From positions 682,001 to 746,000 of the forward strand of contig JAFLVO010000001.1 in NCBI GenBank assembly GCA_022508245.1: a stretch of DNA of 64,000 nucleotides, written 5' to 3'. The position numbers were made by a program, and so were the translations under genes. Position 1 is the first letter of the stretch. The number at the start of each line of letters is the position of its first letter. Under the pieces are notes generated by a model. That model did not search any database. It was given only the letters and a program-made list of their open reading frames with translations, and was not told where the DNA came from. This DNA is from Clostridiales bacterium (GTDB lineage: Bacteria; Bacillota; Clostridia; Christensenellales; Borkfalkiaceae). Below are positions 20,261 to 31,342 of the stretch, one piece after another.

Positions 20261-20803
20261 TTAGAAATTATCACCATTGGCAACAATAAAATCAGTTAAA
20301 TTTATTTCTATTTTCTTTTGAGAACCGTTCAAAAACCACGATTCGCAATCCGAATATCTTTCGGTCAAACAAATTATCCGCTGATTGATTGAGCCGAGTA
20401 TCTTCCGCGCCGTTTCCCGTAGATTCTCCATATAGGCGCCGTCGAGGACAACGTCGCACCCAATTAGAATATCTTTCACATCTTCATAATGTCTTCCCGT
20501 GAACGAAATTACACCCAACCCTAAAGCGTGGATGCCAGCTGTAAGCTGCGGAAGATTTTGCTGCAAAGTCGGTTCTCCCCCGGAATATGTAACTCCCTCT
20601 ATCCCAAAATTATCCCTTGCCTCTTTTATTATTCGTAAAAGTTCATCAAGCGTTAAAATATATTTAGGAACGAGCGGTTGATAGTCAGGATTGCAGCACC
20701 CTTTGCAGTGGATATTGCAACCCTGAAACCATATAGTAAGCCGTTTATTTGGACCTTCTACTTCCGTACAACAATTGATACTTGAGACATTAAACTTAGT
20801 CAT
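20261..20803 (-). CDS. NrdG-like radical SAM protein of the six-gene operon
   Basis: 180 aa. Compact radical SAM domain with CNIHCKGC (CX3CX2C, [4Fe-4S]-AdoMet cluster) about residue 30, preceded by WFQGCN and followed by the AdoMet-contact motif TYSGGEPTLQ. Size and layout match activating enzymes such as NrdG (anaerobic ribonucleotide reductase activase), but no glycyl-radical enzyme is encoded nearby. The ATG (20801-20803) overlaps the Clp-like gene stop by 8 bp. The longer TTG-started reading is less likely. In this operon it may generate a radical on a partner protein or modify a nucleotide; both are inference. Confidence 0.85.
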   Translation of the reverse strand: MTKFNVSSINCCTEVEGPNKRLTIWFQGCNIHCKGCCNPDYQPLVPKYILTLDELLRIIKEARDNFGIEGVTYSGGEPTLQQNLPQLTAGIHALGLGVISFTGRHYEDVKDILIGCDVVLDGAYMENLRETARKILGSINQRIICLTERYSDCESWFLNGSQKKIEINLTDFIVANGDNF

Positions 20804-22634
20804 TTTCAAAGCTAAATTCAAGTTCGTTCTTTGTGGTCTTTACAAGGATTTTTGCCCCTTTCATAGAAGACAAATCCTGCTTGTTCTCGAACATAAACAT
20901 CGCAAGCTCGTCAAGGAGTTTATCGTTAATGGCGTTTAAAATATCACGTCCGCCTTTACTGCTGTCCGCACCACCGAGAATATAGTTTATAAACTTCAGT
21001 TCATCTTCAAATTCAAGGTCTATTCTGTACTTTTCGAGAATTCCCTTTTGAACGGGACGGAGCTTGGACCTGGCAATCTTGATACTGAACTCCTTATCCT
21101 TAATAAAGTTGAACGGAACGATATTACTGTAACCGATACGACCGAGAATTTCGGGACGTTTGATTTCGTTGTCAAAATAGTTCTTGACAATTTTTATGAA
21201 TTCTTCGGCTATATACTCGTTAGTTCCGCTTGACGACACTTCTGAAGCTCCGAGGTTGGAAGTAAAGATGATTACACTTTCGCTGAAATATACCGTTTCG
21301 CCTTTGCTGTCGGTAAGGCGACCGTCTTCGAGAATTTGCAGAAATATATCGAGTATGCGTGGATTGGGCTTTGCCGCCTTTTCTATTTCGTCAAACAAAA
21401 TGATGCTGAACGGTTTTTCTTTGACTGCGTTCGTGAGCTGTCCGCCCTCTTCGTATCCGACATATCCCGGAGGCGCGCCAATGAGTTTTTGATCGCTGTT
21501 CTCCTGTGCATATTCCGACATATCGAAACGGATGCAAGCCTGCTCGTCGCCGAAAAGGAATTTTGCAAGCGCTTTTGAAAGCTCCGTTTTACCTACACCC
21601 GTAGGTCCGACAAAGAACAACACTCCTTTGGGAGCCGAACGACTTGACGATTTATGGATACCCGTAAGTCCCATGTACGCTTTCACAACGACATTTTCAA
21701 TCTTCTCGATGGCTTCTTCTTGACCGACAACTCTCTCACTGAGAATTTTCTTAATATATTTAACGGCTTTATAGTCGAGTTTTTCCCACGGGTTGTCCTT
21801 CTCGCCGTACTTGAATAAGAGATACAACTGCTCAAAAGGCAATTTGCCCTCTTTGCGAGAAAGGCGAGCCATTTGGATTATCTCACGATTGGTGAAATCG
21901 TCGAGCATATCCACATACTCATTTTTCTTATCGCAAGTCATAAGGCTTTCGCCCGGTTTGAGTTTTACCTCAAATCCGCTCTCCACCTTTTCGAGCATTT
22001 TCTCCCTTTCTTCTCTGTCGGGTTTGGAAAGCGTAAGACAAGCTACTTCCGGATTATTTTGGTAGAAGGCTATCGGGAACATGGCAAGTTTGCTAGTGAT
22101 AAGAATTACAGTGCTTTCGTTGACTTCAGAAGCAAGGTACTCCACCTTTTTATCTTTGATTGCCTTGCCGAGGAGCGTTAAAAGCTCACGCTCATCGGGA
22201 GGAAGCTGTCCGCCTGTTGAGAAGAGATAATCTGCCCAATTGAGAACAAAAGCAATTTTACGGTTTGGTTTTTTGAGGTTCTTGAAGATAATATTGAAAA
22301 TTTCAGCAGGTTCTTTGAATAATCCGCTACCCGTCTTATCTTCTTCGTTAGACTGCTGTTCTTCTTCGTCATCAAAAGAGTATGCATCCCCCTCGACTTC
22401 AACTTCGTCAATTACTGAAAGTCGGGATACGTCACCGTCTACGCCGTCAATTCTATCCCAATATAGAACATCATCGTATTCCATACTTTTGAGCATATCA
22501 ATAAGATACTGCTTCAAGTCGACGATTTGCTTTTTGTCGTTGAGATACACGTCGCCTACATTACCATCAACAATAACGCACTTCTTGATTCCAATTTCTC
22601 TTTTTAACCGATTAAACGTTGTACCGAGTGCCAT
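20796..22634 (-). CDS. Clp/Hsp100-like AAA+ ATPase with inactive first module
   Basis: 612 aa. The C-terminal half is a Clp-type AAA_2 plus ClpB D2 module: Walker A GPTGVGKTELSKAL near 341, Walker B IILFDEIEKA near 415, pore-loop/GYVG region GAPPGYVGYEEGGQLT, sensor TSNLGASE and a C-terminal D2-small domain. The N-terminal half (about 1-290) resembles an AAA domain (VLNWADYLF, LASEVNESTVILITS) but has no Walker A, and carries an acidic insertion near 90-105. There is no Clp N-domain and no ClpP-binding loop that I can see. Start: AAGGAG 6 nt before the ATG. It is likely an unfoldase or remodelling motor for the operon's other proteins. Confidence 0.88.
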   Translation of the reverse strand: MALGTTFNRLKREIGIKKCVIVDGNVGDVYLNDKKQIVDLKQYLIDMLKSMEYDDVLYWDRIDGVDGDVSRLSVIDEVEVEGDAYSFDDEEEQQSNEEDKTGSGLFKEPAEIFNIIFKNLKKPNRKIAFVLNWADYLFSTGGQLPPDERELLTLLGKAIKDKKVEYLASEVNESTVILITSKLAMFPIAFYQNNPEVACLTLSKPDREEREKMLEKVESGFEVKLKPGESLMTCDKKNEYVDMLDDFTNREIIQMARLSRKEGKLPFEQLYLLFKYGEKDNPWEKLDYKAVKYIKKILSERVVGQEEAIEKIENVVVKAYMGLTGIHKSSSRSAPKGVLFFVGPTGVGKTELSKALAKFLFGDEQACIRFDMSEYAQENSDQKLIGAPPGYVGYEEGGQLTNAVKEKPFSIILFDEIEKAAKPNPRILDIFLQILEDGRLTDSKGETVYFSESVIIFTSNLGASEVSSSGTNEYIAEEFIKIVKNYFDNEIKRPEILGRIGYSNIVPFNFIKDKEFSIKIARSKLRPVQKGILEKYRIDLEFEDELKFINYILGGADSSKGGRDILNAINDKLLDELAMFMFENKQDLSSMKGAKILVKTTKNELEFSFEND

Positions 22635-22644
22635 AATTTACTCC

Positions 22645-23757
22645 TTATTTTTTATTCTTATTTGTATTGATTGCCTGATATTTCATTGTGGAAATTTTAT
22701 CAGGATTACTCCAAATTTCAGTCTGCTTTGTTACATGAATTCCGTACACTTCCTCTAAATCGTGCATAAAGGGTTCAATGTCTTTCTGGCACGCTCGCCC
22801 CTCATAACCTCGGAAATCATAGATAAATCTTCCGTCAAGGAATATTCTGAACTTCGCTTTTTCACCACTTGCTTTGAGGGCAACCATGATTACTTCATTA
22901 GTATCGCGCTTGATTTTAATATTCTTTTTATCGACTATAAAGCCCCTCTGCTTGATGGCGTCCATTATAATTTTAAGTGACTTCTGGCGCAATTTTTCGC
23001 CCACAATCTCCTGCGTTGCCGCCTCTCTTATTGCAGTGAGTTTTTCTCGTGCAGAGCCGCTCGCTTTGCCAATAACCTTATCCACAGTTTCTTTATCAAC
23101 TCTTGCCGCTTCAAGTTCCGCACGTATTTTTGCCGATTCTCCGGCATAGCGGGATTCATAGGTTGAATTTACGATTTTTTCCATAAGCGCCTTACCTGCA
23201 GCAATAAGACTTTCTCCGACAAGCATATTGTCCTGTAAATATGCAAGGTAAGTAAACTGCCTTAATGTAGCGTCATCAATGGTATCAAGAACCCTCTGCG
23301 TAGCCTCATCAATGGAAATAACACCATTGTTGCGCTCACGCATTTTTCGTTGATTGTCTTGAATACTCTCATCTAAAAGAGTCGTTAACAGGCTTTGAAA
23401 TTCAATCATTCTTTTTGATGATATTTCATCAATCGTATGTTGTAAATTTTTGGCAGACTCAATAATATCATTACGACGCCTATATTCTTCACGATCGGAA
23501 TCCACGTAAACAACACCACGCTTCCCTAGTGCTATCGCCTGGGCTTTTAATGCATCTATCTGTGATAATAATTCATTTCTTTCCCGTTCAATTGACTGTA
23601 CAAGCTCAACTGCTTGTTCTTTCATAAGTGTCAAAGATGTCTCTTTGAGTTTTGCAAGCATATCATCAAGCTCTTTCAGTCTCGCCTCCGCAACTTCGCA
23701 GACACTTTCGCACTGAATAGCAATGCCTTGATAGTCAATCTGTACCTGATGGCTCAT
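22645..23757 (-). CDS. Coiled-coil protein of the six-gene operon, unknown function
   Basis: 370 aa. Residues ~15-130 form long heptad-rich helices (EARLKELDDMLAKLKE, RERNELLSQIDALKAQA). The middle (140-265) is also helical. The C-terminal ~100 residues look like a small alpha/beta domain (KSLKIIMDAIKQRG, VALKASGEKAKFRIFLDGRF, YDFRGYEGRACQKD). No catalytic motif is recognised. It overlaps the HEPN protein stop by 4 bp and precedes the Clp-like gene by 10 bp, so it is probably made with both and may be an adaptor or structural partner. Confidence 0.75.
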   Translation of the reverse strand: MSHQVQIDYQGIAIQCESVCEVAEARLKELDDMLAKLKETSLTLMKEQAVELVQSIERERNELLSQIDALKAQAIALGKRGVVYVDSDREEYRRRNDIIESAKNLQHTIDEISSKRMIEFQSLLTTLLDESIQDNQRKMRERNNGVISIDEATQRVLDTIDDATLRQFTYLAYLQDNMLVGESLIAAGKALMEKIVNSTYESRYAGESAKIRAELEAARVDKETVDKVIGKASGSAREKLTAIREAATQEIVGEKLRQKSLKIIMDAIKQRGFIVDKKNIKIKRDTNEVIMVALKASGEKAKFRIFLDGRFIYDFRGYEGRACQKDIEPFMHDLEEVYGIHVTKQTEIWSNPDKISTMKYQAINTNKNKK

Positions 23758-25970
23758 ATTTTACCTCCGTTTATTGAAAATACAGCGTCTTCCCATTCGG
23801 TTATGGTCAGTTTATCGAATTTAACTTGTTTGTCGGTTGGATGCTGAAAGCTATTGCGGCACATGCGAAGTTTATGTAAGGTGTCTGCCTGCTTCCCGTC
23901 AATATATCTTCTTCTTTTCGCCTCATCAATCAGCTCGTTTGCAGGGACAGTATTGTCCGCTTGTAGCAATTTTCGCAGGTCAGACTGCAGCTTTATCAAT
24001 AAATCGCAAATTGCATCTTTATATTTACCTCGTAATAACTGCTCGTCAATATATTTTTTTGTAATTTTATCTGGATGGGAAGATGATGTTCTTTCAATTG
24101 CTAAGAGATCGTGAATAGGCTCAAAAATCTCGGTATAACGCTTCAACTCGCCGTATTCTTTTAATGCGTATTCCATATACTTTTCCACTGCACCGAAAGA
24201 GGATTTATAGGTAGCGTATGTGCCGAAAAACCCATCGATATTGTAGTCTTCTTTAAGCGTATAAACCGAGAAATCATCTATGCCCAAAATATCATTAAGT
24301 TTCCAAAGATTAACTCTGACTGTATTAAATTTTGCAGCGAGGTCGTTATCCGTGGAAATTTCCTCGTTTTCAAGGACTGCCCGCATGTATACTTCTACGA
24401 CATTTGCAACCCCAAGTATCTCAACGGTAGCAAACCCTGCTGCAGAAAGTGCCTGATATACGAGCGTAGGCTCTTCATCTTTTCTTATATCCTGTGAGAA
24501 ACTGAAAATGTAGTCAGTTTTAGACATACCTATAGCGCTTGCAAGAGGCGACAAAACGGTATTTTTATAAATCATATTATCAAGCCGAATTTCCTTCACG
24601 CTCTCTGCATACATTTCATTTGCAAATCGCTCAAAGAACGGCTTCCACTCAGCGGACTTTTTCAATGCTTCATTCAATTTTAAGAGAACACCTATTTTCT
24701 CATCCGCTGATTTGACTTCATTCAATTTGGCTGTTGCATATTTTTCGAATAGCGTCGGAGAATGTAACACGTCGACGGCAAACATAATAACCTTACCGCT
24801 TTCACTGTTAAACGGTATTTCGGTATACAAATTGAATATGCTGTTTATCATCTCGTCGAACTTTTCTGCCGAAAGCTGATTCTCCACAAGTAGCTGAATT
24901 TCAAACACATCGTCAAGCTGCTCACAAGGGATGGCGACATTCAATGCACGGTAGTATCTGCATCCGGTGTTATCCAAAAGTGCAAACTCAGCGTTTTTAT
25001 CAACTGCGTCCAATAGTTTTTTTGATGTAGCCTCATCTGTCTTTATAACACTATCTGCTCTTTCGTAGCCGAAAGAGTTTCTGCTGATATAAATCTTGCA
25101 TGGTCTTGCCGCTTGTTTTTGAATATCATCCGGTATATAAAGATTAGAAGCTCCCAAATCTTCAAATCGAACGGAAGGAACAGAAATGGGGTTCTTCTTG
25201 CTATCGTAAAACTTATATTTCGTTTTAAGAAGCATGACCTCCTTCATTATCTTCGAAGTATAATATTTGACGAAAAATACATTTTCGTCGTTCGTTTCAA
25301 ATAAAAACTCCACACCGCTCTCACGAATGTTAATCGTGAGATTTTCGTCTTTACATGTTCCTTTCCATTGAGGTTCTTTCATCTCAAAAGAAACCATGCG
25401 TTCTTCTGCTTTAAGACCCATTTTTGTGGGGTTTGCGTTAATGTAATCCCCCATACCGCTGATATCTATATCGACCGACGCCATGAAGTCGTTGTTAAAA
25501 TATCTGCATACGGCTTCGTCAAGACAATGTGAAAAGGCAATGTCAAACTTCCTCTTTACGGGATCGAAGTAAATATCTTTTACCTTAATCTTTTCTGCAC
25601 CCGTAGGGATTGCACCCTCTTTGAACATCTTTTTGCCCTTACCGGTAAGCGCAACCTCTCCAACTTGTATCTGACTAAAATATTTAGGGTTGCTGAAATG
25701 CTCGGCCGTGTACACCGATTTAATAATTTCCGTTCCAATTAGTCCGGCAAGCTCTCTTCCGAAAATATAATGTAAATCTGTCGGAATGCCGAACTTCAAC
25801 AGCACTTCGGAAATCTTCTCTTTTGAACCTTTCGATTTCTCGATGAGTTCAAGAAGAATATAGGAAACTCCAGAAGCCTTTCTGACCTCGTTATACTTAA
25901 TATTCGTCCTATATATCAAAAGAGGAAACGGACAGGACGTCTTGATTTGTTTTATCATTTTATCTTCCAT
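23754..25970 (-). CDS. Large protein with C-terminal HEPN (RX4H) ribonuclease motif
   Basis: 738 aa. The N-terminal ~150 residues contain a winged-helix-like segment (LLELIEKSKGSKEKISEVLL ... LTGKGKKMF). The central part is not recognised. The C-terminal ~150 residues are all-helical and end with RNSFQH (Arg705, His710), the RX4-6H signature of HEPN-fold RNases, toxins and defence effectors. The start is ATG 25968-25970, with GGAGG 5-6 nt upstream, overlapping the helicase stop by 11 bp; an in-frame codon at 26012 is less likely. If the HEPN site is active, this is the probable effector of the operon. Activity is not shown by sequence alone. Confidence 0.8.
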   Translation of the reverse strand: MEDKMIKQIKTSCPFPLLIYRTNIKYNEVRKASGVSYILLELIEKSKGSKEKISEVLLKFGIPTDLHYIFGRELAGLIGTEIIKSVYTAEHFSNPKYFSQIQVGEVALTGKGKKMFKEGAIPTGAEKIKVKDIYFDPVKRKFDIAFSHCLDEAVCRYFNNDFMASVDIDISGMGDYINANPTKMGLKAEERMVSFEMKEPQWKGTCKDENLTINIRESGVEFLFETNDENVFFVKYYTSKIMKEVMLLKTKYKFYDSKKNPISVPSVRFEDLGASNLYIPDDIQKQAARPCKIYISRNSFGYERADSVIKTDEATSKKLLDAVDKNAEFALLDNTGCRYYRALNVAIPCEQLDDVFEIQLLVENQLSAEKFDEMINSIFNLYTEIPFNSESGKVIMFAVDVLHSPTLFEKYATAKLNEVKSADEKIGVLLKLNEALKKSAEWKPFFERFANEMYAESVKEIRLDNMIYKNTVLSPLASAIGMSKTDYIFSFSQDIRKDEEPTLVYQALSAAGFATVEILGVANVVEVYMRAVLENEEISTDNDLAAKFNTVRVNLWKLNDILGIDDFSVYTLKEDYNIDGFFGTYATYKSSFGAVEKYMEYALKEYGELKRYTEIFEPIHDLLAIERTSSSHPDKITKKYIDEQLLRGKYKDAICDLLIKLQSDLRKLLQADNTVPANELIDEAKRRRYIDGKQADTLHKLRMCRNSFQHPTDKQVKFDKLTITEWEDAVFSINGGKI

Positions 25971-28900
25971 TGTCGCCTCCGATAATATCACTTGCTGTAA
26001 GCACTCTGCCACGGAAATATATAGTATCTATAATTTCTTTATAGACGTGGAAGTTTACCTTATCCAACGCTTTTTTCCCTTCAAGATCAGGCAAGTCGAT
26101 GACTCCTGCTTCTGAAAGGAAGCGTTTGGAACCGACTATTATCAAGAGTTTTCTTGCACGGGACAGGGCTACGTTGATACGCTCGAACTTCTTGATAAAC
26201 TCTGCATCATAGCGTTTGCCAGGCGCAGGATTTCGCACCATGGATACTATGATGATATCTCTCTCATCACCCTGAAAATCATCTACCGTGCTGATAATAA
26301 GGCGCTCGTCCTGTTTTTGCGAAAAACCGGTAAACTGAGCCCTTCCTCGCATCTTTTTGATATGTCCCGCCTGATCGCCATAAGTGCAGATAACACCCAT
26401 GCTTGGTCTTTCATCGATTTTCTTATCTTTATCGAACTTGAGCTTGCCTGCTTTTACAAGCTCGCCTGCGGCCTTATCAAGCTCTCTCATTAGGGAGATT
26501 GCAACCTCGGACTCTTGCTCGTTTATCTTAGAGGTACTTCCCTCGTAGGCGCTAGACTCCCTTTGGTCACAGTCAACAAAATATATATGATGATTGGGAT
26601 CAATTATAGTATTTCCGCCTATTCTGACTGTTAGATTATGTTGTTTTTCGTCGTCTTGATGTTGTTTGCCGACGGTGAGTCCCTTTTGACTACCGCCATA
26701 GAAGTGATTAAATACTTCCATTATATGACTATGACAACGATACTGCTTGTTCAGCATTACTCTGAATTCGTCGGGAACCTTCTCATATAGAGTTTTGAAG
26801 AAGCACTCTTCGTACAGCGCAGTATATCCTTCATTGATTTTCTTGGAAATAATTTTACTGTCAAGCCCTTCAAAATCCTCTTCGCGAAGGTGACGCAAAT
26901 CATACATTGGCGGAAGCTGTCTGTGATCCCCTACAAGAATAACGGTTTTCCCGTAGAGAATCGGAATAAGTAAATCCAAAAGAGATGATTTAGAAACCTC
27001 GTCTATGATGACGACATCTATCCCCTGCGTTCGGATATCGACCGATTCAATGCCGTAATTTGCAAGCTCTTTCAGTTGCGTCGGCGTAAATTTATCACGG
27101 CTCGTACAGGTGATACCGAATACGTTGACGCAGTTGTATAGCTCACGGGTATAAGCTTGCCGATCCTCTTCGAGAATATCTTCCTGCGAAAGATATTTGC
27201 AAATTGCCCGATAAGTCGGTATTTTGGTTTGATTCTCTTTCTGCGTCTTTTTATAGTCGCGCTCTAACTTGTCCCACTCCTCCTTGATGATATCGAACGC
27301 CGTTTCGAGATTGCTCGTGTCGTATTCTCTGACGATAGCAAAATTGCGGAAGAAACGGGTAATTTTCTGCCTTAATGCAGAATCGAGTTCGCCGTACTCC
27401 TCAACAACCTTATTCTCACCCAGCTCCTCATAACGGCGTTTGTTGTCACTAATTTCAAGCTGTTTTTCACTAATTTTTTGAGTAAGGGAATTTTCTTCTT
27501 TAAGATAGCGCACCATCGCTTTTTCGACGTCAGCTTTCATTTCTGCAACCAATGTCTGCAATTTGATTTTGAACGCAGTCAATTCTTCGGGCAGAGATTT
27601 TAAGAGTGTGCTGTCATTTGTTATTGTAGGAACTAATGAATAAATTAGGCTTGCAGACAAATCAACTGACGATGAATTTTGTGCGGTTTTAATTTGATTA
27701 CCGACATTGATAAGTTCTGCCTGATGTTTTTTATATTCGGTAAGATTTTCAGGAGGCACTTCATCCGTATCGGGATCTCGCAGATCCTGTAATATTTTAC
27801 GAAGGTCACGCTGACGGTTCTTCAATTTTAAGACGGTGTCTTCCGAAAGGAACAGTGCAAGTTCCTCTTTTATTGCACCAATATCTGCTTTGTTAAGCTC
27901 GCCGACTTTGTCTACCGAAACGGATTCAAGGCAAGCAAATCCAGAGAGCAATTCCTCTAATTTACGAATAAATGCCTCAATATATTGCTCTTTTGCTCCT
28001 TCCGTAGATGGACGGCAGCTCTCTATGTATTTGATTGTTCTGCGGTGCTCTTCAATATGCTCTCTTGCAAGTGCAAGCTGATCGCGCAGACTTTGCAACT
28101 CTTCATTGAGTATATTTACAGTGTTACTGATTGACTGCCGTTCGCTTTTAATCTTTGCATTTTCACTATTTAGTCTTAAAAGTCTGTCGTACTCCCGACG
28201 GAGGAGCTTCATTTCTTCATCGAATGTAGCTTTAGTTTCTTCGAAATGCTCAAACCGCCTTACTTGCCGTTCAAGGTTTCCGCTGATATTGGCATAAAAA
28301 TTATCTACAAGCCGTTCGGGGCTGTAATTTGTTTCCTTTCCGTTCTGCGACGGAATGAGACGCAACGGTCTGATTTCGGGAATTTTAGGCAATCTCTCGA
28401 ACACATTATCAATTGCTTTATGTGTTTCCGATGAAATCAAAACTTTTTTACCCTGCCGAGCCAGCTGCGCCGTTATTTCGGCAATGACCTGTGTTTTACC
28501 TGTCCCCGGAGGTCCCTGCAATAAGAATAAACTTTCACTTGCGAGCGCTCTTTTAACTGCAGTTTTCTGCCTGTCATTCAAACTTTCCCAACACATTTCA
28601 GGATCTTCTTGTACTGCCCTTACTGTCTGTGCCAGCGTTTCGGGTGCAAATAAGTAAGCAGGCAAATAGGGGTTTTTAACGTAACCGCAGAGGAAGGAAT
28701 TTAATGCCTTTTCCTGTCTTTCAATCTTCGCCTTCTCGGCACGGTTATCGTATGTGAGATATGCCGTATTGTAAGTTTCGATTTCTTTTTTAATTTCAGA
28801 AATTGTATCGGTAATATCGTTGGGACGGAAATAAATTTGATAGCGCCTTACCGTTTCACTTTCTATCTTGTCTGCCTTATCCCTTCCCAATTTATCATGC

Positions 28901-30579
28901 AGTTCGCGCTTGACATCTGCTTTTTCATTCGTAATAGGTCCTTTGTACTGCACTTCAAGTTGGGACTTCCTTTCATTCTTGAGCCGGTCAAGCTCTGCTT
29001 GCATGGCAATTGAAATGCTCTTACGCTTATTTTCTACAAGTTTTGCGTTGCGGGAAATATAGAACGACCGCAAGGACAAAGATTGCCTTACACTTTTCTT
29101 TTCACCCTCAAACTTTTCTTCTAATGCATTCTTCTTTTCTTCAAGAACGGCAATCGCTGCCTTTTTCTGTTCTTTGTCCGACTTGTCCTTTTTTATCTTA
29201 TCGATTTCCGCATCGATTGCCTTTATCTGCTTTTTGTATTCCGTCTCAATTGGAGCAAGCTGTTTTGCAATTTCACTTTCATAATCTTTTATGACTTCTT
29301 TATCTTTGTTCTCTGCAATATCCCGCTCAAGAGCTGCTTCATGCGAACTCTTGTATTCGGCTAATTTCTTATCGTACTGCGCCTTTAATATAACTGCCTG
29401 TCCATCTTTGAACTTTATTAGTTCGGCAGTAATAATTCCTTGATACTTAATATCTATTCTCTCATACGCAGCTAAAAGGTCTTTTTCGTACTTCTTTTCG
29501 AGTGCGGTGCAGTCCGGTTCAATATCTACATAAGCAAACAAGTAACGTTCACCTAAAGAATACTGGAAGAACCTGACCCCTTTAGGCAAATCTCCGTTCT
29601 CGTCGTATCTCGGAGGAGTCGTAGAAAGCCCCATTGAATCCTTCGTATATCTTTGTAGCCATACTTCGAATTTCGGTTTACCTTTACCGTTTTTACTGAG
29701 CGTATCGCTCAAAACCGATTTTCTGTTTCTCTCGACATCAATTCTAATGAGCGGGAAGCCTACCGCACCGCTCACTTCCTTGGAAAGGATGATTTGCTCA
29801 CCTTTTGAAAACTGTGCGAGATTGTCTAAAAGCAGCTCAGAATATGAATCCTCATTCCGCCTGTAAATATCCTTCGTAATCATATATGAATTGCAGACAG
29901 TTACACATTCAGCTTGTTCACATCGCTCCGATTGTTTGCCCAAATAATATCTGCGGAATTTGATATATTTTTGCCACTCGTCAAATGTAGTGAGTGCCTT
30001 TTGAGGATTGGGAACAGGGTACAGCTCTGTGCAGAGAGCGTTCACAAAATCGTTTGTGAGAACTGGATTATGCATCTCTCTAACGCCGTAATCAGGCACA
30101 GTTATTGATTTACCGTTTGCTACAAATGACCTATTCATAAAAGCACAAGCTGCCGTACAGTAGACCTTTCTCTCGCCAAACTTGGCAACATTGATGTCTA
30201 TTAGCTCAATCCCTTTTACTGTAATATCGATTACATTGCCGAAAGTAACATCTCCAATAATAATCAAATCATAATTTTTAGGCAACCTATATGAAAGTGA
30301 TACGTCTTTTTCAGGACGGATTACAATGTTATAGATACATTGCTTACTACGACGGTTTTCTTTTATGCGCCTGTCAAATCCGGGAAGTGACACATAGTAA
30401 AATTTATCGTTCAAGGGGAATGCACTCGCTATAAACTCTTGCAGGTTATCTGCGGCAAAATTACCCAATCTCGGTTTTAGCGCCTCATACTGCTCGTTGA
30501 GAGATAATGTATAGAAATCGTCCCAACTTCTACTGCCACGTTCAAGGTTATCCATAAAGTTTAAGTACAAATAGCCCAT
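25960..30579 (-). CDS. Giant SF1 (Upf1/Dna2-like) helicase with central coiled coils
   Basis: 1539 aa from ATG 30577-30579 (GAGGG 7 nt upstream). The N-terminal ~350 residues are unrecognised. Residues ~360-640 and 780-1130 are rich in coiled coil, the latter inserted between helicase motifs. Helicase motifs: I QGPPGTGKTQ (~689), Ia SSETHKAIDNV, II VVIIDEVSK (~1188), III VGDHRQLPP, V DDFQGDERDIIIVS, VI NVALSRARKLLIIVG; all fit AAA_11/AAA_12 helicases, which act on DNA or RNA. The frame stays open upstream through a TGA (30652-30654) to an ATG (30682-30684) that overlaps the regulator stop as ATGA, so the annotated start may be a shortened one. It is the second gene of the six-gene operon. Confidence 0.9.
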   Translation of the reverse strand: MGYLYLNFMDNLERGSRSWDDFYTLSLNEQYEALKPRLGNFAADNLQEFIASAFPLNDKFYYVSLPGFDRRIKENRRSKQCIYNIVIRPEKDVSLSYRLPKNYDLIIIGDVTFGNVIDITVKGIELIDINVAKFGERKVYCTAACAFMNRSFVANGKSITVPDYGVREMHNPVLTNDFVNALCTELYPVPNPQKALTTFDEWQKYIKFRRYYLGKQSERCEQAECVTVCNSYMITKDIYRRNEDSYSELLLDNLAQFSKGEQIILSKEVSGAVGFPLIRIDVERNRKSVLSDTLSKNGKGKPKFEVWLQRYTKDSMGLSTTPPRYDENGDLPKGVRFFQYSLGERYLFAYVDIEPDCTALEKKYEKDLLAAYERIDIKYQGIITAELIKFKDGQAVILKAQYDKKLAEYKSSHEAALERDIAENKDKEVIKDYESEIAKQLAPIETEYKKQIKAIDAEIDKIKKDKSDKEQKKAAIAVLEEKKNALEEKFEGEKKSVRQSLSLRSFYISRNAKLVENKRKSISIAMQAELDRLKNERKSQLEVQYKGPITNEKADVKRELHDKLGRDKADKIESETVRRYQIYFRPNDITDTISEIKKEIETYNTAYLTYDNRAEKAKIERQEKALNSFLCGYVKNPYLPAYLFAPETLAQTVRAVQEDPEMCWESLNDRQKTAVKRALASESLFLLQGPPGTGKTQVIAEITAQLARQGKKVLISSETHKAIDNVFERLPKIPEIRPLRLIPSQNGKETNYSPERLVDNFYANISGNLERQVRRFEHFEETKATFDEEMKLLRREYDRLLRLNSENAKIKSERQSISNTVNILNEELQSLRDQLALAREHIEEHRRTIKYIESCRPSTEGAKEQYIEAFIRKLEELLSGFACLESVSVDKVGELNKADIGAIKEELALFLSEDTVLKLKNRQRDLRKILQDLRDPDTDEVPPENLTEYKKHQAELINVGNQIKTAQNSSSVDLSASLIYSLVPTITNDSTLLKSLPEELTAFKIKLQTLVAEMKADVEKAMVRYLKEENSLTQKISEKQLEISDNKRRYEELGENKVVEEYGELDSALRQKITRFFRNFAIVREYDTSNLETAFDIIKEEWDKLERDYKKTQKENQTKIPTYRAICKYLSQEDILEEDRQAYTRELYNCVNVFGITCTSRDKFTPTQLKELANYGIESVDIRTQGIDVVIIDEVSKSSLLDLLIPILYGKTVILVGDHRQLPPMYDLRHLREEDFEGLDSKIISKKINEGYTALYEECFFKTLYEKVPDEFRVMLNKQYRCHSHIMEVFNHFYGGSQKGLTVGKQHQDDEKQHNLTVRIGGNTIIDPNHHIYFVDCDQRESSAYEGSTSKINEQESEVAISLMRELDKAAGELVKAGKLKFDKDKKIDERPSMGVICTYGDQAGHIKKMRGRAQFTGFSQKQDERLIISTVDDFQGDERDIIIVSMVRNPAPGKRYDAEFIKKFERINVALSRARKLLIIVGSKRFLSEAGVIDLPDLEGKKALDKVNFHVYKEIIDTIYFRGRVLTASDIIGGDNGR

Positions 30580-30680
30580 CTTTATCCCTCTGTTTTGCTC
30601 CTCATACCATTTTTCATATTGCTGATCCTTAAAGGAATCACTCCCCTCATATCAACGCCTATACTCTTCGTCGTCATCTC

Positions 30681-31208
30681 TCATTTTCTTCCGCTCGTTG
30701 CTTTGCGATATTTTTCAAATATGTCTAAATAGTCAATAAATTCTTTCATTTCCGAAGGAGAAGCTTCTGCGGTAATAGAAGAAATTTTATCAAATAGAAC
30801 TGCCTTAGTAAACTCATCGAGATTGCTAAATTTCTTCAATGACACCGTTTGCCTTTGAAGTTCAGCATTTTCAGCAGAAAGTTCTCTGACTTTTTCCGTC
30901 AGCTCTTCTATGGAGGCAATGGAATCCTTCTTACCGTTTATTGTGTCTTTTAGTATGCTTGATATTCGGTTGACATACTGTGCCAAAATTTCTTGATCGG
31001 ATTCGTCAAGCAATAACTCAAGCTCTGTCTCGTTTTCTTTTCCGAAAAGATAGAATATCTTTATTTGTTTGTCTTTAGGAATATCGATAAACTCTTCCAA
31101 ATTGCGATAATTGTAAATAGTCGCCTTGGAAATCTCAAGATATTTAGCCAGATCATTGACCTTGATCGAAAATTTAGTAACTAATCTCTCAAACAATTTT
31201 GTTGTCAT
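30681..31208 (-). CDS. HTH/coiled-coil regulator at the head of the six-gene operon
   Basis: 175 aa. An N-terminal helix-turn-helix (VNDLAKYLEISKATIYNYRN, residues ~15-35) is followed by helical segments and a leucine-zipper-like coiled coil (EELTEKVRELSAENAELQRQ, ~100-125). The architecture suggests a dimeric DNA-binding repressor or activator. The start is ATG 31206-31208 with AGGTG 6 nt upstream. The promoter just upstream carries repeated ATCTAAT boxes, so autoregulation is likely. The stop codon overlaps an ATG as ATGA, coupling it to the helicase frame. Confidence 0.8.
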   Translation of the reverse strand: MTTKLFERLVTKFSIKVNDLAKYLEISKATIYNYRNLEEFIDIPKDKQIKIFYLFGKENETELELLLDESDQEILAQYVNRISSILKDTINGKKDSIASIEELTEKVRELSAENAELQRQTVSLKKFSNLDEFTKAVLFDKISSITAEASPSEMKEFIDYLDIFEKYRKATSGRK

Positions 31209-31219
31209 AACATTCACCT

Positions 31220-31342
31220 ATCTAATAATGTTAAATAGAGTATATCATTAATCTAATGCAAAGTCAATAATAATACTTAAAAAAGTCTAAAATCGTCTAA
31301 TTTGGTTTAATTTATTAATAATTCAATTAAAATAAATCTAAT
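31220..31342. promoter_or_regulatory. Array of ATCTAAT-type boxes around the regulator promoter
   Basis: Same-orientation boxes: ATCTAAT 31220-31226, ATCTAAT 31251-31257, GTCTAAA 31285-31291, GTCTAAT 31295-31301, ATCTAAT 31336-31342. Spacings are 31, 34, 10 and 41 bp, close to whole helical turns. One lies inside the promoter spacer and one just downstream of the expected start. They are likely binding sites for the HTH protein. Confidence 0.55.
31239..31267 (-). promoter_or_regulatory. Sigma-A promoter of the six-gene operon
   Basis: TTGACT (31262-31267), 17-nt spacer, TATACT (31239-31244); expected start near 31232, about 24 nt upstream of the ATG. It is the only good promoter seen for the genes from 31.2 to 20.3 kb. 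Confidence 0.8.

What the first reader, a model, noticed from the sequence alone, without database searches (positions are those of the whole stretch)
20261..31267. Six-gene operon of regulator, giant helicase, HEPN protein, coiled-coil protein, Clp-like ATPase and NrdG-like radical SAM enzyme
Seen: one promoter, same strand, overlaps or gaps of 10 bp or less from the helicase onward (11-bp overlap, 4-bp overlap, 10-bp gap, 8-bp overlap) and no internal terminator. Established: Upf1-like helicases, HEPN RNases and AAA+ remodellers recur in antiviral and stress systems; radical SAM enzymes occur in some (viperins), but this one is NrdG-like. Inference: the set is a self-contained defence or stress system in which helicase and ATPase sense or remodel, HEPN is the toxic effector and the radical SAM protein activates or makes a small product. 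I do not recognise the combination as a named system. It sits in an accessory region beside a conserved locus.
Basis: partly seen in the sequence, partly recalled or inferred. Interest (0 to 1): 0.82.

Follow-up and report, generated by a model that had tools for sequence, protein, structure and literature searches.

The report
Helicase–RNase operon with radical-SAM module
This is a real, widely shared five-gene bacterial operon, most likely an antiviral RNA-cutting system, in which a helicase and an interchangeable RNA-cutting enzyme travel with a protein-remodelling ATPase, a small iron-sulphur radical enzyme and a conserved protein that may be its target; I found no name for it in the libraries and papers searched.

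Summary
Confirmed: five tightly packed minus-strand genes (20261-30579) encode a UPF1-like helicase, a HEPN-tailed effector, a coiled-coil protein (CC), a ClpB-D2-like AAA+ ATPase and an NrdG-like radical SAM enzyme; the upstream HTH gene is probably not core. The same order occurs in 48 loci (42 of the 80 best genome hits, the window, one further genome, four plasmids), by record titles over ten bacterial phyla and one archaeon, mostly MAGs. The effector tail is HEPN in 18, PIN in 22 and other in 8 of 48; the tree needs one HEPN/PIN swap. The ATPase joins a P-loop-less domain to an active ClpB-type one; all eight residues invariant in 49 CC proteins lie in its C-terminal domain. PADLOC matches single proteins (helicase: MkoA); neither it, NCBIfam nor nine literature searches names the set. 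Best explanation: mobile defence in which helicase and RNase attack foreign RNA under control of the ATPase, the radical enzyme and CC, perhaps its substrate. Both halves resemble known themes (CoCoNuT CnuH-CnuE; FtsH ternary systems). No assay exists; the defence role is inferred.

The parts
31239..31267 (-). candidate promoter TTGACT-17-TATACT (extended -10) upstream of the HTH gene
   Evidence: consensus match only
30681..31217 (-). small HTH protein (178 aa), probably accessory, not core
   Evidence: also in G034; no regulator annotated just upstream in five plasmid operons
25960..30579 (-). UPF1/SMUBP2-like SF1 helicase, 1539 aa, about 500 residues between motif I (688-696) and motif II (1193-1194)
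23754..26012 (-). effector: shared front part (about 1-470) plus C-terminal HEPN tail; likely true start ATG at 25970
23754..24536 (-). HEPN tail, residues about 493-752; R716, R719, N720, H724 signature
22645..23757 (-). coiled-coil protein, 370 aa
22699..22995 (-). conserved C-terminal domain of the coiled-coil protein (residues 255-353; invariant R257, F273, G298, Y318, C323, Y338, N351, P352): candidate radical-SAM target
   Evidence: substrate role inferred
20796..22634 (-). double AAA+ ATPase, 612 aa: P-loop-less N-terminal part (1-290, read by me as a degenerate AAA+ domain) plus active ClpB/ClpC D2-type domain (294-587)
20261..20821 (-). NrdG/PFL-activase-like radical SAM enzyme, CxxxCxxCC; likely true start ATG at 20803

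Best explanation
A mobile, probably antiviral, five-gene system. The UPF1-like helicase and the effector form the working pair: the helicase loads on foreign RNA (or ssDNA) and brings the effector's HEPN or PIN RNase to RNA, destroying invader transcripts or shutting the cell down. The double AAA+ ATPase, radical SAM enzyme and coiled-coil protein form a control module: the ATPase remodels the coiled-coil protein or the helicase-effector complex, and the radical SAM enzyme puts a radical-derived modification on a protein partner, most likely the Y-x-G-x-x-C loop in the coiled-coil protein's C-terminal domain, licensing or releasing the RNase. Shown: gene set, order, conservation, conserved catalytic motifs, swappable RNase-type tail, plasmid carriage. 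Inferred: antiviral role, RNA as target, complex formation, the modified residue and its effect.
For: 48 loci with the fixed order hel-eff-CC-AAA-rSAM; median gap -4 bp, 186 of 192 gaps <=15 bp, maximum 61. By record titles they span Bacillota, Mycoplasmatota, Campylobacterota, Bacteroidota, Planctomycetota, Pseudomonadota, Spirochaetota, Synergistota, Fibrobacterota, Actinomycetota and one archaeon, interleaved in the AAA tree as transfer would give. Tails: PIN 22, HEPN 18, other 8 of 48; one HEPN/PIN change among those 40 rows; RN...H in 18 of 18 HEPN tails. Motif patterns: AAA Walker A 47/48, Walker B 48/48, no P-loop in the first 270 residues in any of 48; helicase motif I 47/48, III 48/48 (strict patterns for II, IV and VI: 38, 34 and 43 of 48); rSAM CxxxCxxC and GGEP 48/48. 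All 8 invariant columns of 49 CC proteins lie at residues 257-352. Five plasmid operons read; in three of five, BrxL and DarT, HsdR-N and TIR, or HsdS, MazF and the anti-restriction protein ArdA lie in the stretch. The genome has its own NrdD and NrdG elsewhere, so this rSAM is not the ribonucleotide reductase activator.
Against: No experiment. The window's own flanks are housekeeping genes. The neighbour comparison is crude: 136 PADLOC families matched by 124 neighbour ORFs against 65 by 123 control ORFs, hand-picked and not matched by taxon; the control's listed families are mostly Pbe/Ssp. No other gene is shared by many loci, but upstream flanks were mostly not held. 8 of 48 effectors lack a recognised RNase tail, three of them only 388-479 aa. 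Foldseek of the effector model gave no match at E<=0.001, and the tail profile found no HEPN structure. The CC domain matched no known family or fold confidently, so its role as substrate rests on conservation alone. Profile comparison did not link it to the coiled-coil proteins of the kinase loci or to fvmX5. Most genome records are MAGs, so some host labels may be wrong.
Confidence: 0.66

Rival explanations
1. A stress or RNA-quality-control system of the host (for example redox- or SAM-sensing dormancy) rather than antiviral defence; the 4Fe-4S enzyme would sense oxidation and the RNase would stop translation.
For: Many carriers look gut-associated or anaerobic (my reading of record titles); the rSAM needs a reduced cluster and SAM (established knowledge); the window's flanks are housekeeping genes.
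Against: Patchy presence (effector in 2 of 61 genomes, own genome included), tree interleaved across phyla, plasmid carriage, carriers that I recall as aerobic such as Zoogloea and Massilia (titles).
Confidence: 0.17
2. The AAA+-rSAM pair makes or matures a peptide or cofactor, the helicase-RNase pair being a separate immune unit that merely travels with it.
For: AAA+ and rSAM occur together without this effector in loci with kinase, FHA and PP2C genes.
Against: 48 loci keep all five in one order with median -4 bp gaps; of the 11 further AAA+rSAM loci in that set, nine are short contigs or stretches at contig ends and two are a variant.
Confidence: 0.1
3. The radical SAM enzyme makes a small antiviral molecule, like a viperin.
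For: Weak PADLOC viperin hits (best 1.5e-7, 29 bits), over the first part of the protein only.
Against: Best sequence relatives are NrdG/PFL activases; the viperin match stops at residue 106 of 186.
Confidence: 0.04

Closest known systems
CoCoNuT CnuH-CnuE helicase-effector pair (PMC11090510; passages and section 9 part 1 seen)
   Same: UPF1-like SF1 helicase with a large insertion after Walker A, followed by a gene for an effector ending in a nuclease (HEPN in types II and III-A); coiled coils in the operon.
   Different: No McrB GTPase or McrC found here; a ClpB-like ATPase, an rSAM enzyme and a different coiled-coil protein instead; PIN as well as HEPN tails. 'Radical SAM', 'Clp' and 'PIN domain' do not occur in that paper's main text.
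FtsH ternary systems (Kaur et al. 2020, PMC7159879; passages and section 21 seen)
   Same: Double AAA+ ATPase with a dead first domain, plus a radical SAM enzyme predicted to modify a peptide effector; an rSAM close enough to be found with this operon's alignment sits in Planctomycete loci with fvmX5/6/7 proteins.
   Different: FtsH-type instead of ClpB-type ATPase, vWA/MoxR partners, no UPF1-like helicase-RNase pair in the section read.
Kinase/FHA/PP2C loci with AAA+ and rSAM
   Same: Same kind of double AAA+ and NrdG-like rSAM, and often a coiled-coil protein with a conserved C-terminus.
   Different: Ser/Thr kinase, FHA and PP2C genes in place of the helicase-effector pair (one plasmid also has a DUF4011 protein); CC homology not detected. 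I know of no name for them.
Mokosh (MkoA)
   Same: Helicase hits PADLOC MkoA (7.3e-87, 291 bits).
   Different: The PLD part of Mokosh (recalled) is absent; five genes instead of one or two (recalled).

Membership tests
Mokosh | MkoA-type UPF1-like RNA helicase | tested here: met
   PADLOC MkoA 290.8 bits; best stretch 1184-1518, in the helicase core
Mokosh | PLD-fold nuclease partner or fusion (recalled) | tested here: not met
   no PLD domain among the Pfam hits of the six proteins (for the helicase the best 25 of 26 were shown); effector tails are HEPN, PIN or unrecognised
CoCoNuT (type II/III) | UPF1-like helicase with large insertion after Walker A, followed by a nuclease effector gene | tested here: met
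   motif I 688-696, motif II 1193-1194; effector directly downstream
CoCoNuT (type II/III) | McrB-family GTPase and McrC | tested here: not met
   no McrC; the ATPase scores as ClpB/ClpC, with McrB only a weak shared-fold hit, 17.9 bits against cut-off 637
CoCoNuT (type II/III) | elongated wHTH at the effector N-terminus | tested here: inconclusive
   AF2 model (mean pLDDT 91.7) shows several helices and short strands in residues 48-132; no fold match at E<=0.001
FtsH ternary system | FtsH-type AAA+ with dead first domain | tested here: not met
   first part lacks a P-loop, but the active domain is ClpB/ClpC D2-type
FtsH ternary system | vWA and MoxR components | tested here: not met
   no vWA domain in the operon's proteins; no MoxR family match over cut-off
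NrdG (anaerobic RNR activase) | score over the NCBIfam cut-off and nrdD next door | tested here: not met
   78.7 bits against cut-off 126.1; NrdG and NrdD over their cut-offs lie on contig C10
Prokaryotic viperin | full-length viperin match | tested here: not met
   29 bits over residues 19-106 only
HEPN RNase (effector tail) | R-x4-6-H motif in an all-helical C-terminal domain | tested here: met
   R716, R719, N720, H724 invariant in 15 of the 18 tails, those aligned; helical in the model; fold search gave no HEPN match; activity not tested
PIN RNase (effector tail in other members) | PIN domain match | tested here: met
   PIN_4 in 20 of 46 effectors at E<=0.05, best 7.4e-22

The most novel reading that the evidence does not exclude
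A defence system controlled by radical chemistry on protein: the AAA+ ring presents the C-terminal domain of the coiled-coil protein to a dedicated activase-like radical SAM enzyme, which installs a glycyl radical, thioether or other radical-derived mark at the Y-x-G-x-x-C loop, and this mark arms or holds back an interchangeable RNase coupled to a UPF1-like helicase, tying immunity to SAM and redox state.
Probability: 0.3. Interest if true: 0.92.

Novelty: new variant of a known kind. Interest (0 to 1): 0.78.

Why it matters
Helicase-nuclease immune pairs are known, but a conserved set that adds an AAA+ remodeller and an activase-like radical SAM enzyme to a swappable RNase, spread by record titles over ten bacterial phyla and an archaeon, is not named in the sources searched. 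If the rSAM enzyme modifies the coiled-coil protein, it would be an immune switch made by radical chemistry on protein, and the ATPase-rSAM pairing would link this system with kinase/FHA/PP2C loci and FtsH ternary systems. Operons in named strains (for example Schwartzia, Zoogloea, Pseudogulbenkiania) make it directly testable.

Tried and rejected
Searching only with the effector gave too few relatives: 2 of 61 and 2 of 391 genomes, own genome included; none in plasmids, phages or viral contigs. The AAA+ and rSAM alignments were used instead. Homology between the CC C-terminal domain here and the coiled-coil proteins of the kinase loci or fvmX5 was tested by profile comparison and not found. 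Foldseek of the CC model gave a top match to human spermine synthase (probability 1.00, E 0.055); not used, since no match reached E<=0.001. E. coli: no genome of 5,426 has a place covering 80% of the CC-AAA-rSAM stretch; the 20 rows listed are clpB. Phage hits of the AAA+ (15 records) cover at most 52% of the query, all in its second half, and are annotated ClpB in the three rows that have annotation. Viperin, NrdG and Mokosh membership rejected (see table). A constant sixth gene was not found: among 375 neighbour ORFs the largest family links 4 loci; for most genome loci little upstream DNA was held, so this is mainly about the downstream side.

Neighbour scan: 124 of 229 downstream ORFs, mostly the nearest four per locus, chosen by hand; L058, L068, L108 and L109 were left out. 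Control: 123 of 130 ORFs from 12 stretches of seven genomes; six lay past my list limit and one very long ORF I dropped. For the split helicases L069 and L112 only the best-scoring piece was used. The ORF starts in fetched loci are the longest possible, so a few lengths and overlaps are overstated. The ten neighbours were picked by me and are no fair sample (4 of 10 matched PADLOC).
Full report
WHAT IS THERE. Five minus-strand genes are packed end to end: helicase 25960-30579, effector 23754-26012, coiled-coil protein (CC) 22645-23757, AAA+ ATPase 20796-22634, radical SAM enzyme 20261-20821. An HTH gene (30681-31217) precedes them by 101 bp. Pfam, NCBIfam and PADLOC identify the helicase core as UPF1/IGHMBP2/MkoA-like, the ATPase as ClpB/ClpC D2-like over its C-terminal half, and the last gene as an NrdG/PFL-activase-like radical SAM protein; CC has no match over any curated cut-off. 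Solved relatives: SMUBP-2, DNA2, SEN1, UPF1 and others for the helicase, ClpC/ClpB D2 and kin for the ATPase, pyruvate formate-lyase activating enzyme for the rSAM.

IT IS A CONSERVED FIVE-GENE UNIT. Orthologous operons were found first in a same-genus genome (G034), then in G076, G755, G985 and G995. A scan of genome contigs with the rSAM alignment gave 228 relatives, of which the best 80 were kept. Of these 80, 53 have AAA+ and rSAM; 42 of the 53 have all five genes in the fixed order (38 effectors found by profile, 4 as an ORF in the right place), 9 are partial operons on short contigs or at contig ends, and 2 (L108, L109) are a variant with a kinase-like gene and, in L109, a vWA gene. The other 27 of 80 have the rSAM without a match to this ATPase; the one examined by Pfam (L084) is an FtsH ternary system (fvmX5/6/7), and its fvmX6 protein falls in one BLAST cluster with proteins of 13 others of the 27. 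Adding the window, one genome (G985) and four plasmid loci gives 48 canonical operons; median gene gap -4 bp, 186 of 192 gaps at or below 15 bp, maximum 61. A fifth plasmid (Leisingera) shows the same five annotated genes. Among 375 neighbour ORFs no family links more than 4 loci, but for most genome loci little upstream DNA was held. The HTH gene is probably not core: it was found in G034, and no regulator is annotated just upstream in five plasmid operons.

SPREAD. The AAA tree interleaves Bacillota, Mycoplasmatota, Campylobacterota, Bacteroidota, Planctomycetota, Pseudomonadota, Spirochaetota, Synergistota, Fibrobacterota, Actinomycetota and a Methanimicrococcus archaeon (quick tree, several long branches). 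Host labels are those of the records: by their titles 11 of the 42 canonical genome loci come from named strains or a complete chromosome, covering four phyla (Bacillota, Mycoplasmatota, Pseudomonadota, Actinomycetota); the other 31 are MAGs or uncultured isolates, where mis-binning is possible. Presence is patchy: AAA hits at E<=1e-110 or 1e-120 in 6 of 391 genomes of the class, 5 of 398 of the phylum and 11 of 189 of another order, counts that include kinase-type loci. 18 plasmid records hold the ATPase at E<=1e-80, some in other contexts; five with the whole operon were read. In three of these five, defence-related genes lie within the stretch: BrxL and DarT; HsdR-N and a TIR protein; HsdS, MazF and the anti-restriction protein ArdA. 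Polaromonas has a toxin-antitoxin-type pair and Leisingera none that I recognise. There the five proteins bear only generic names.

EFFECTOR. The shared front part is followed by a variable tail. Over 46 effectors Pfam finds PIN_4 in 20 and DUF4145 in 9 at E<=0.05; with tail profiles built here, 22 of 48 are PIN, 18 HEPN and 8 other. All 18 HEPN tails keep RN...H near the end; in the 15 of them that I aligned the only invariant residues are R, R, N and H of R..RN...H, the HEPN signature as I know it. On the AAA tree the 18 HEPN rows are one side of a branch, and HEPN/PIN needs one change among the 40 rows; with 'other' as a third state 6 changes are needed. An AlphaFold2 model of the window protein is confident (mean pLDDT 91.7) and its last 160 residues are mostly helical, but Foldseek found no match at E<=0.001 and the tail profile no HEPN structure. 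So the tail is an RNase-type module that was swapped; activity is not shown. Three of the eight others are short proteins with no tail (388-479 aa), three (Treponema) have an unrecognised tail, and two (L051, L073) hold an R-to-H stretch that could be a divergent HEPN (my reading).

CONTROL MODULE. The ATPase has a first part without a P-loop in 48 of 48 (which I read as a degenerate AAA+ domain, untested) and an intact ClpB-type second domain (Walker A 47/48, Walker B 48/48). The rSAM keeps CxxxCxxC and GGEP in 48 of 48 and an extra adjacent cysteine in 47. The genome holds separate NrdD and NrdG genes over the family cut-offs. In 49 CC proteins the eight invariant residues (R257, F273, G298, Y318, C323, Y338, N351, P352) all lie in the last third, G320 being nearly invariant. 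The model (mean pLDDT 74.5, lower at the C-terminus) shows a long helical part, then four strands and a helix, C323 at the start of that helix. An activase-like rSAM with a protein this conserved beside it suggests enzyme and substrate; this is inference.

OTHER CONTEXTS. The same kind of double ATPase and rSAM occurs with Ser/Thr kinase, FHA or PP2C genes: all seven such loci whose neighbours I gave to Pfam had at least one of these (L013, L014, L030-L032, L035, L040), and an Aristaeella plasmid has kinases, FHA, a phosphatase and a DUF4011 protein. A Rhizobium plasmid has ATPase, rSAM and a 2086-aa AAA-domain protein. A coiled-coil protein with a conserved C-terminus sits in all seven of those loci, but profile comparison does not link it to CC.

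COMPARISON WITH THE LITERATURE. The CoCoNuT paper (PMC11090510; passages and section 9 part 1) describes UPF1-like helicases with a large insertion after Walker A followed by nuclease effectors, HEPN among them: the helicase-effector half matches this theme, without McrBC. Kaur et al. (PMC7159879; passages and section 21) describe FtsH ternary systems with a half-dead AAA+ and a radical SAM enzyme that 'likely modifies a peptide-effector': the control half matches that theme, with a ClpB-type ATPase. PMC10853773 and PMC11291487 were seen as passages only; other papers only as listings. No paper naming this five-gene set appeared; the library lacks most subscription papers.

DEFENCE CONTEXT, WITH LIMITS. 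By 124 downstream neighbour ORFs 136 PADLOC families were matched at E<=1e-20 (CARF proteins, Csx1, AbiD, type IV restriction, DpdF, DrmD and HerA among the 25 listed), by 123 ORFs of 12 arbitrary stretches from seven genomes 65 (listed: mostly Pbe and Ssp families, one member each). The sets are hand-picked and not taxon-matched, families overlap, and the number of distinct matching ORFs is not given, so this is suggestive only. The window's own operon lies between SpoIVB-RecN-ArgR-NAD kinase and MatE/acetyltransferase genes.

VERDICT. A real and widely shared five-gene system, most likely mobile immunity acting on RNA; the helicase-RNase half is of a known kind, the combination with an AAA+/radical-SAM/CC module is new as far as searched. 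Confidence: RNase effector about 0.85, defence role about 0.7, rSAM acting on a protein partner about 0.5, on CC's C-terminal loop about 0.3.

Noticed in passing
L084 and related Planctomycete loci (L071, L080, L088, L099 and others): An rSAM of the same kind (CPGCCNP) sits in FtsH ternary systems with fvmX5/6/7 proteins and an RNA 3'-phosphate cyclase (Pfam run on L084 only).
   Followed up: partly
L013, L014, L030-L032, L035, L040, L139 (also L012, L037, L038, neighbours not searched): Half-dead ClpB-like ATPase plus NrdG-like rSAM with Ser/Thr kinase, FHA or PP2C genes; L139 also has a DUF4011 protein. Possibly a separate unnamed system.
   Followed up: partly
L108 and L109: Variant loci: CC, AAA+ and rSAM followed by a kinase-like protein and a helicase, with a vWA protein upstream in L109; the CC matches the helicase-system profile, so they may bridge the two contexts.
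   Followed up: partly
CC-like proteins here, in kinase loci and fvmX5: MS at or near the start: 47 of 50 CC here, MSG in six of seven kinase-locus proteins, in three of them after an upstream start codon, MSRAYRI in fvmX5. Unexplained; may be chance.
   Followed up: no
L011:14221-16106, L133:19233-20219, L135:3428-5496: Further radical SAM genes lie beside the operon in three loci (Schwartzia, read from sequence and a weak profile hit; Acinetobacter and Photobacterium plasmids, annotated).
   Followed up: no
L105, L115, L118 (Treponema): Effectors of 649-689 aa with a tail that matches neither HEPN nor PIN; perhaps a third effector type.
   Followed up: no
L005:1488-6359: Two DNA methylase-like ORFs and a helicase-like ORF next to the operon in the same-genus genome, probably a restriction system (read from the translations, no family search).
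   Followed up: no
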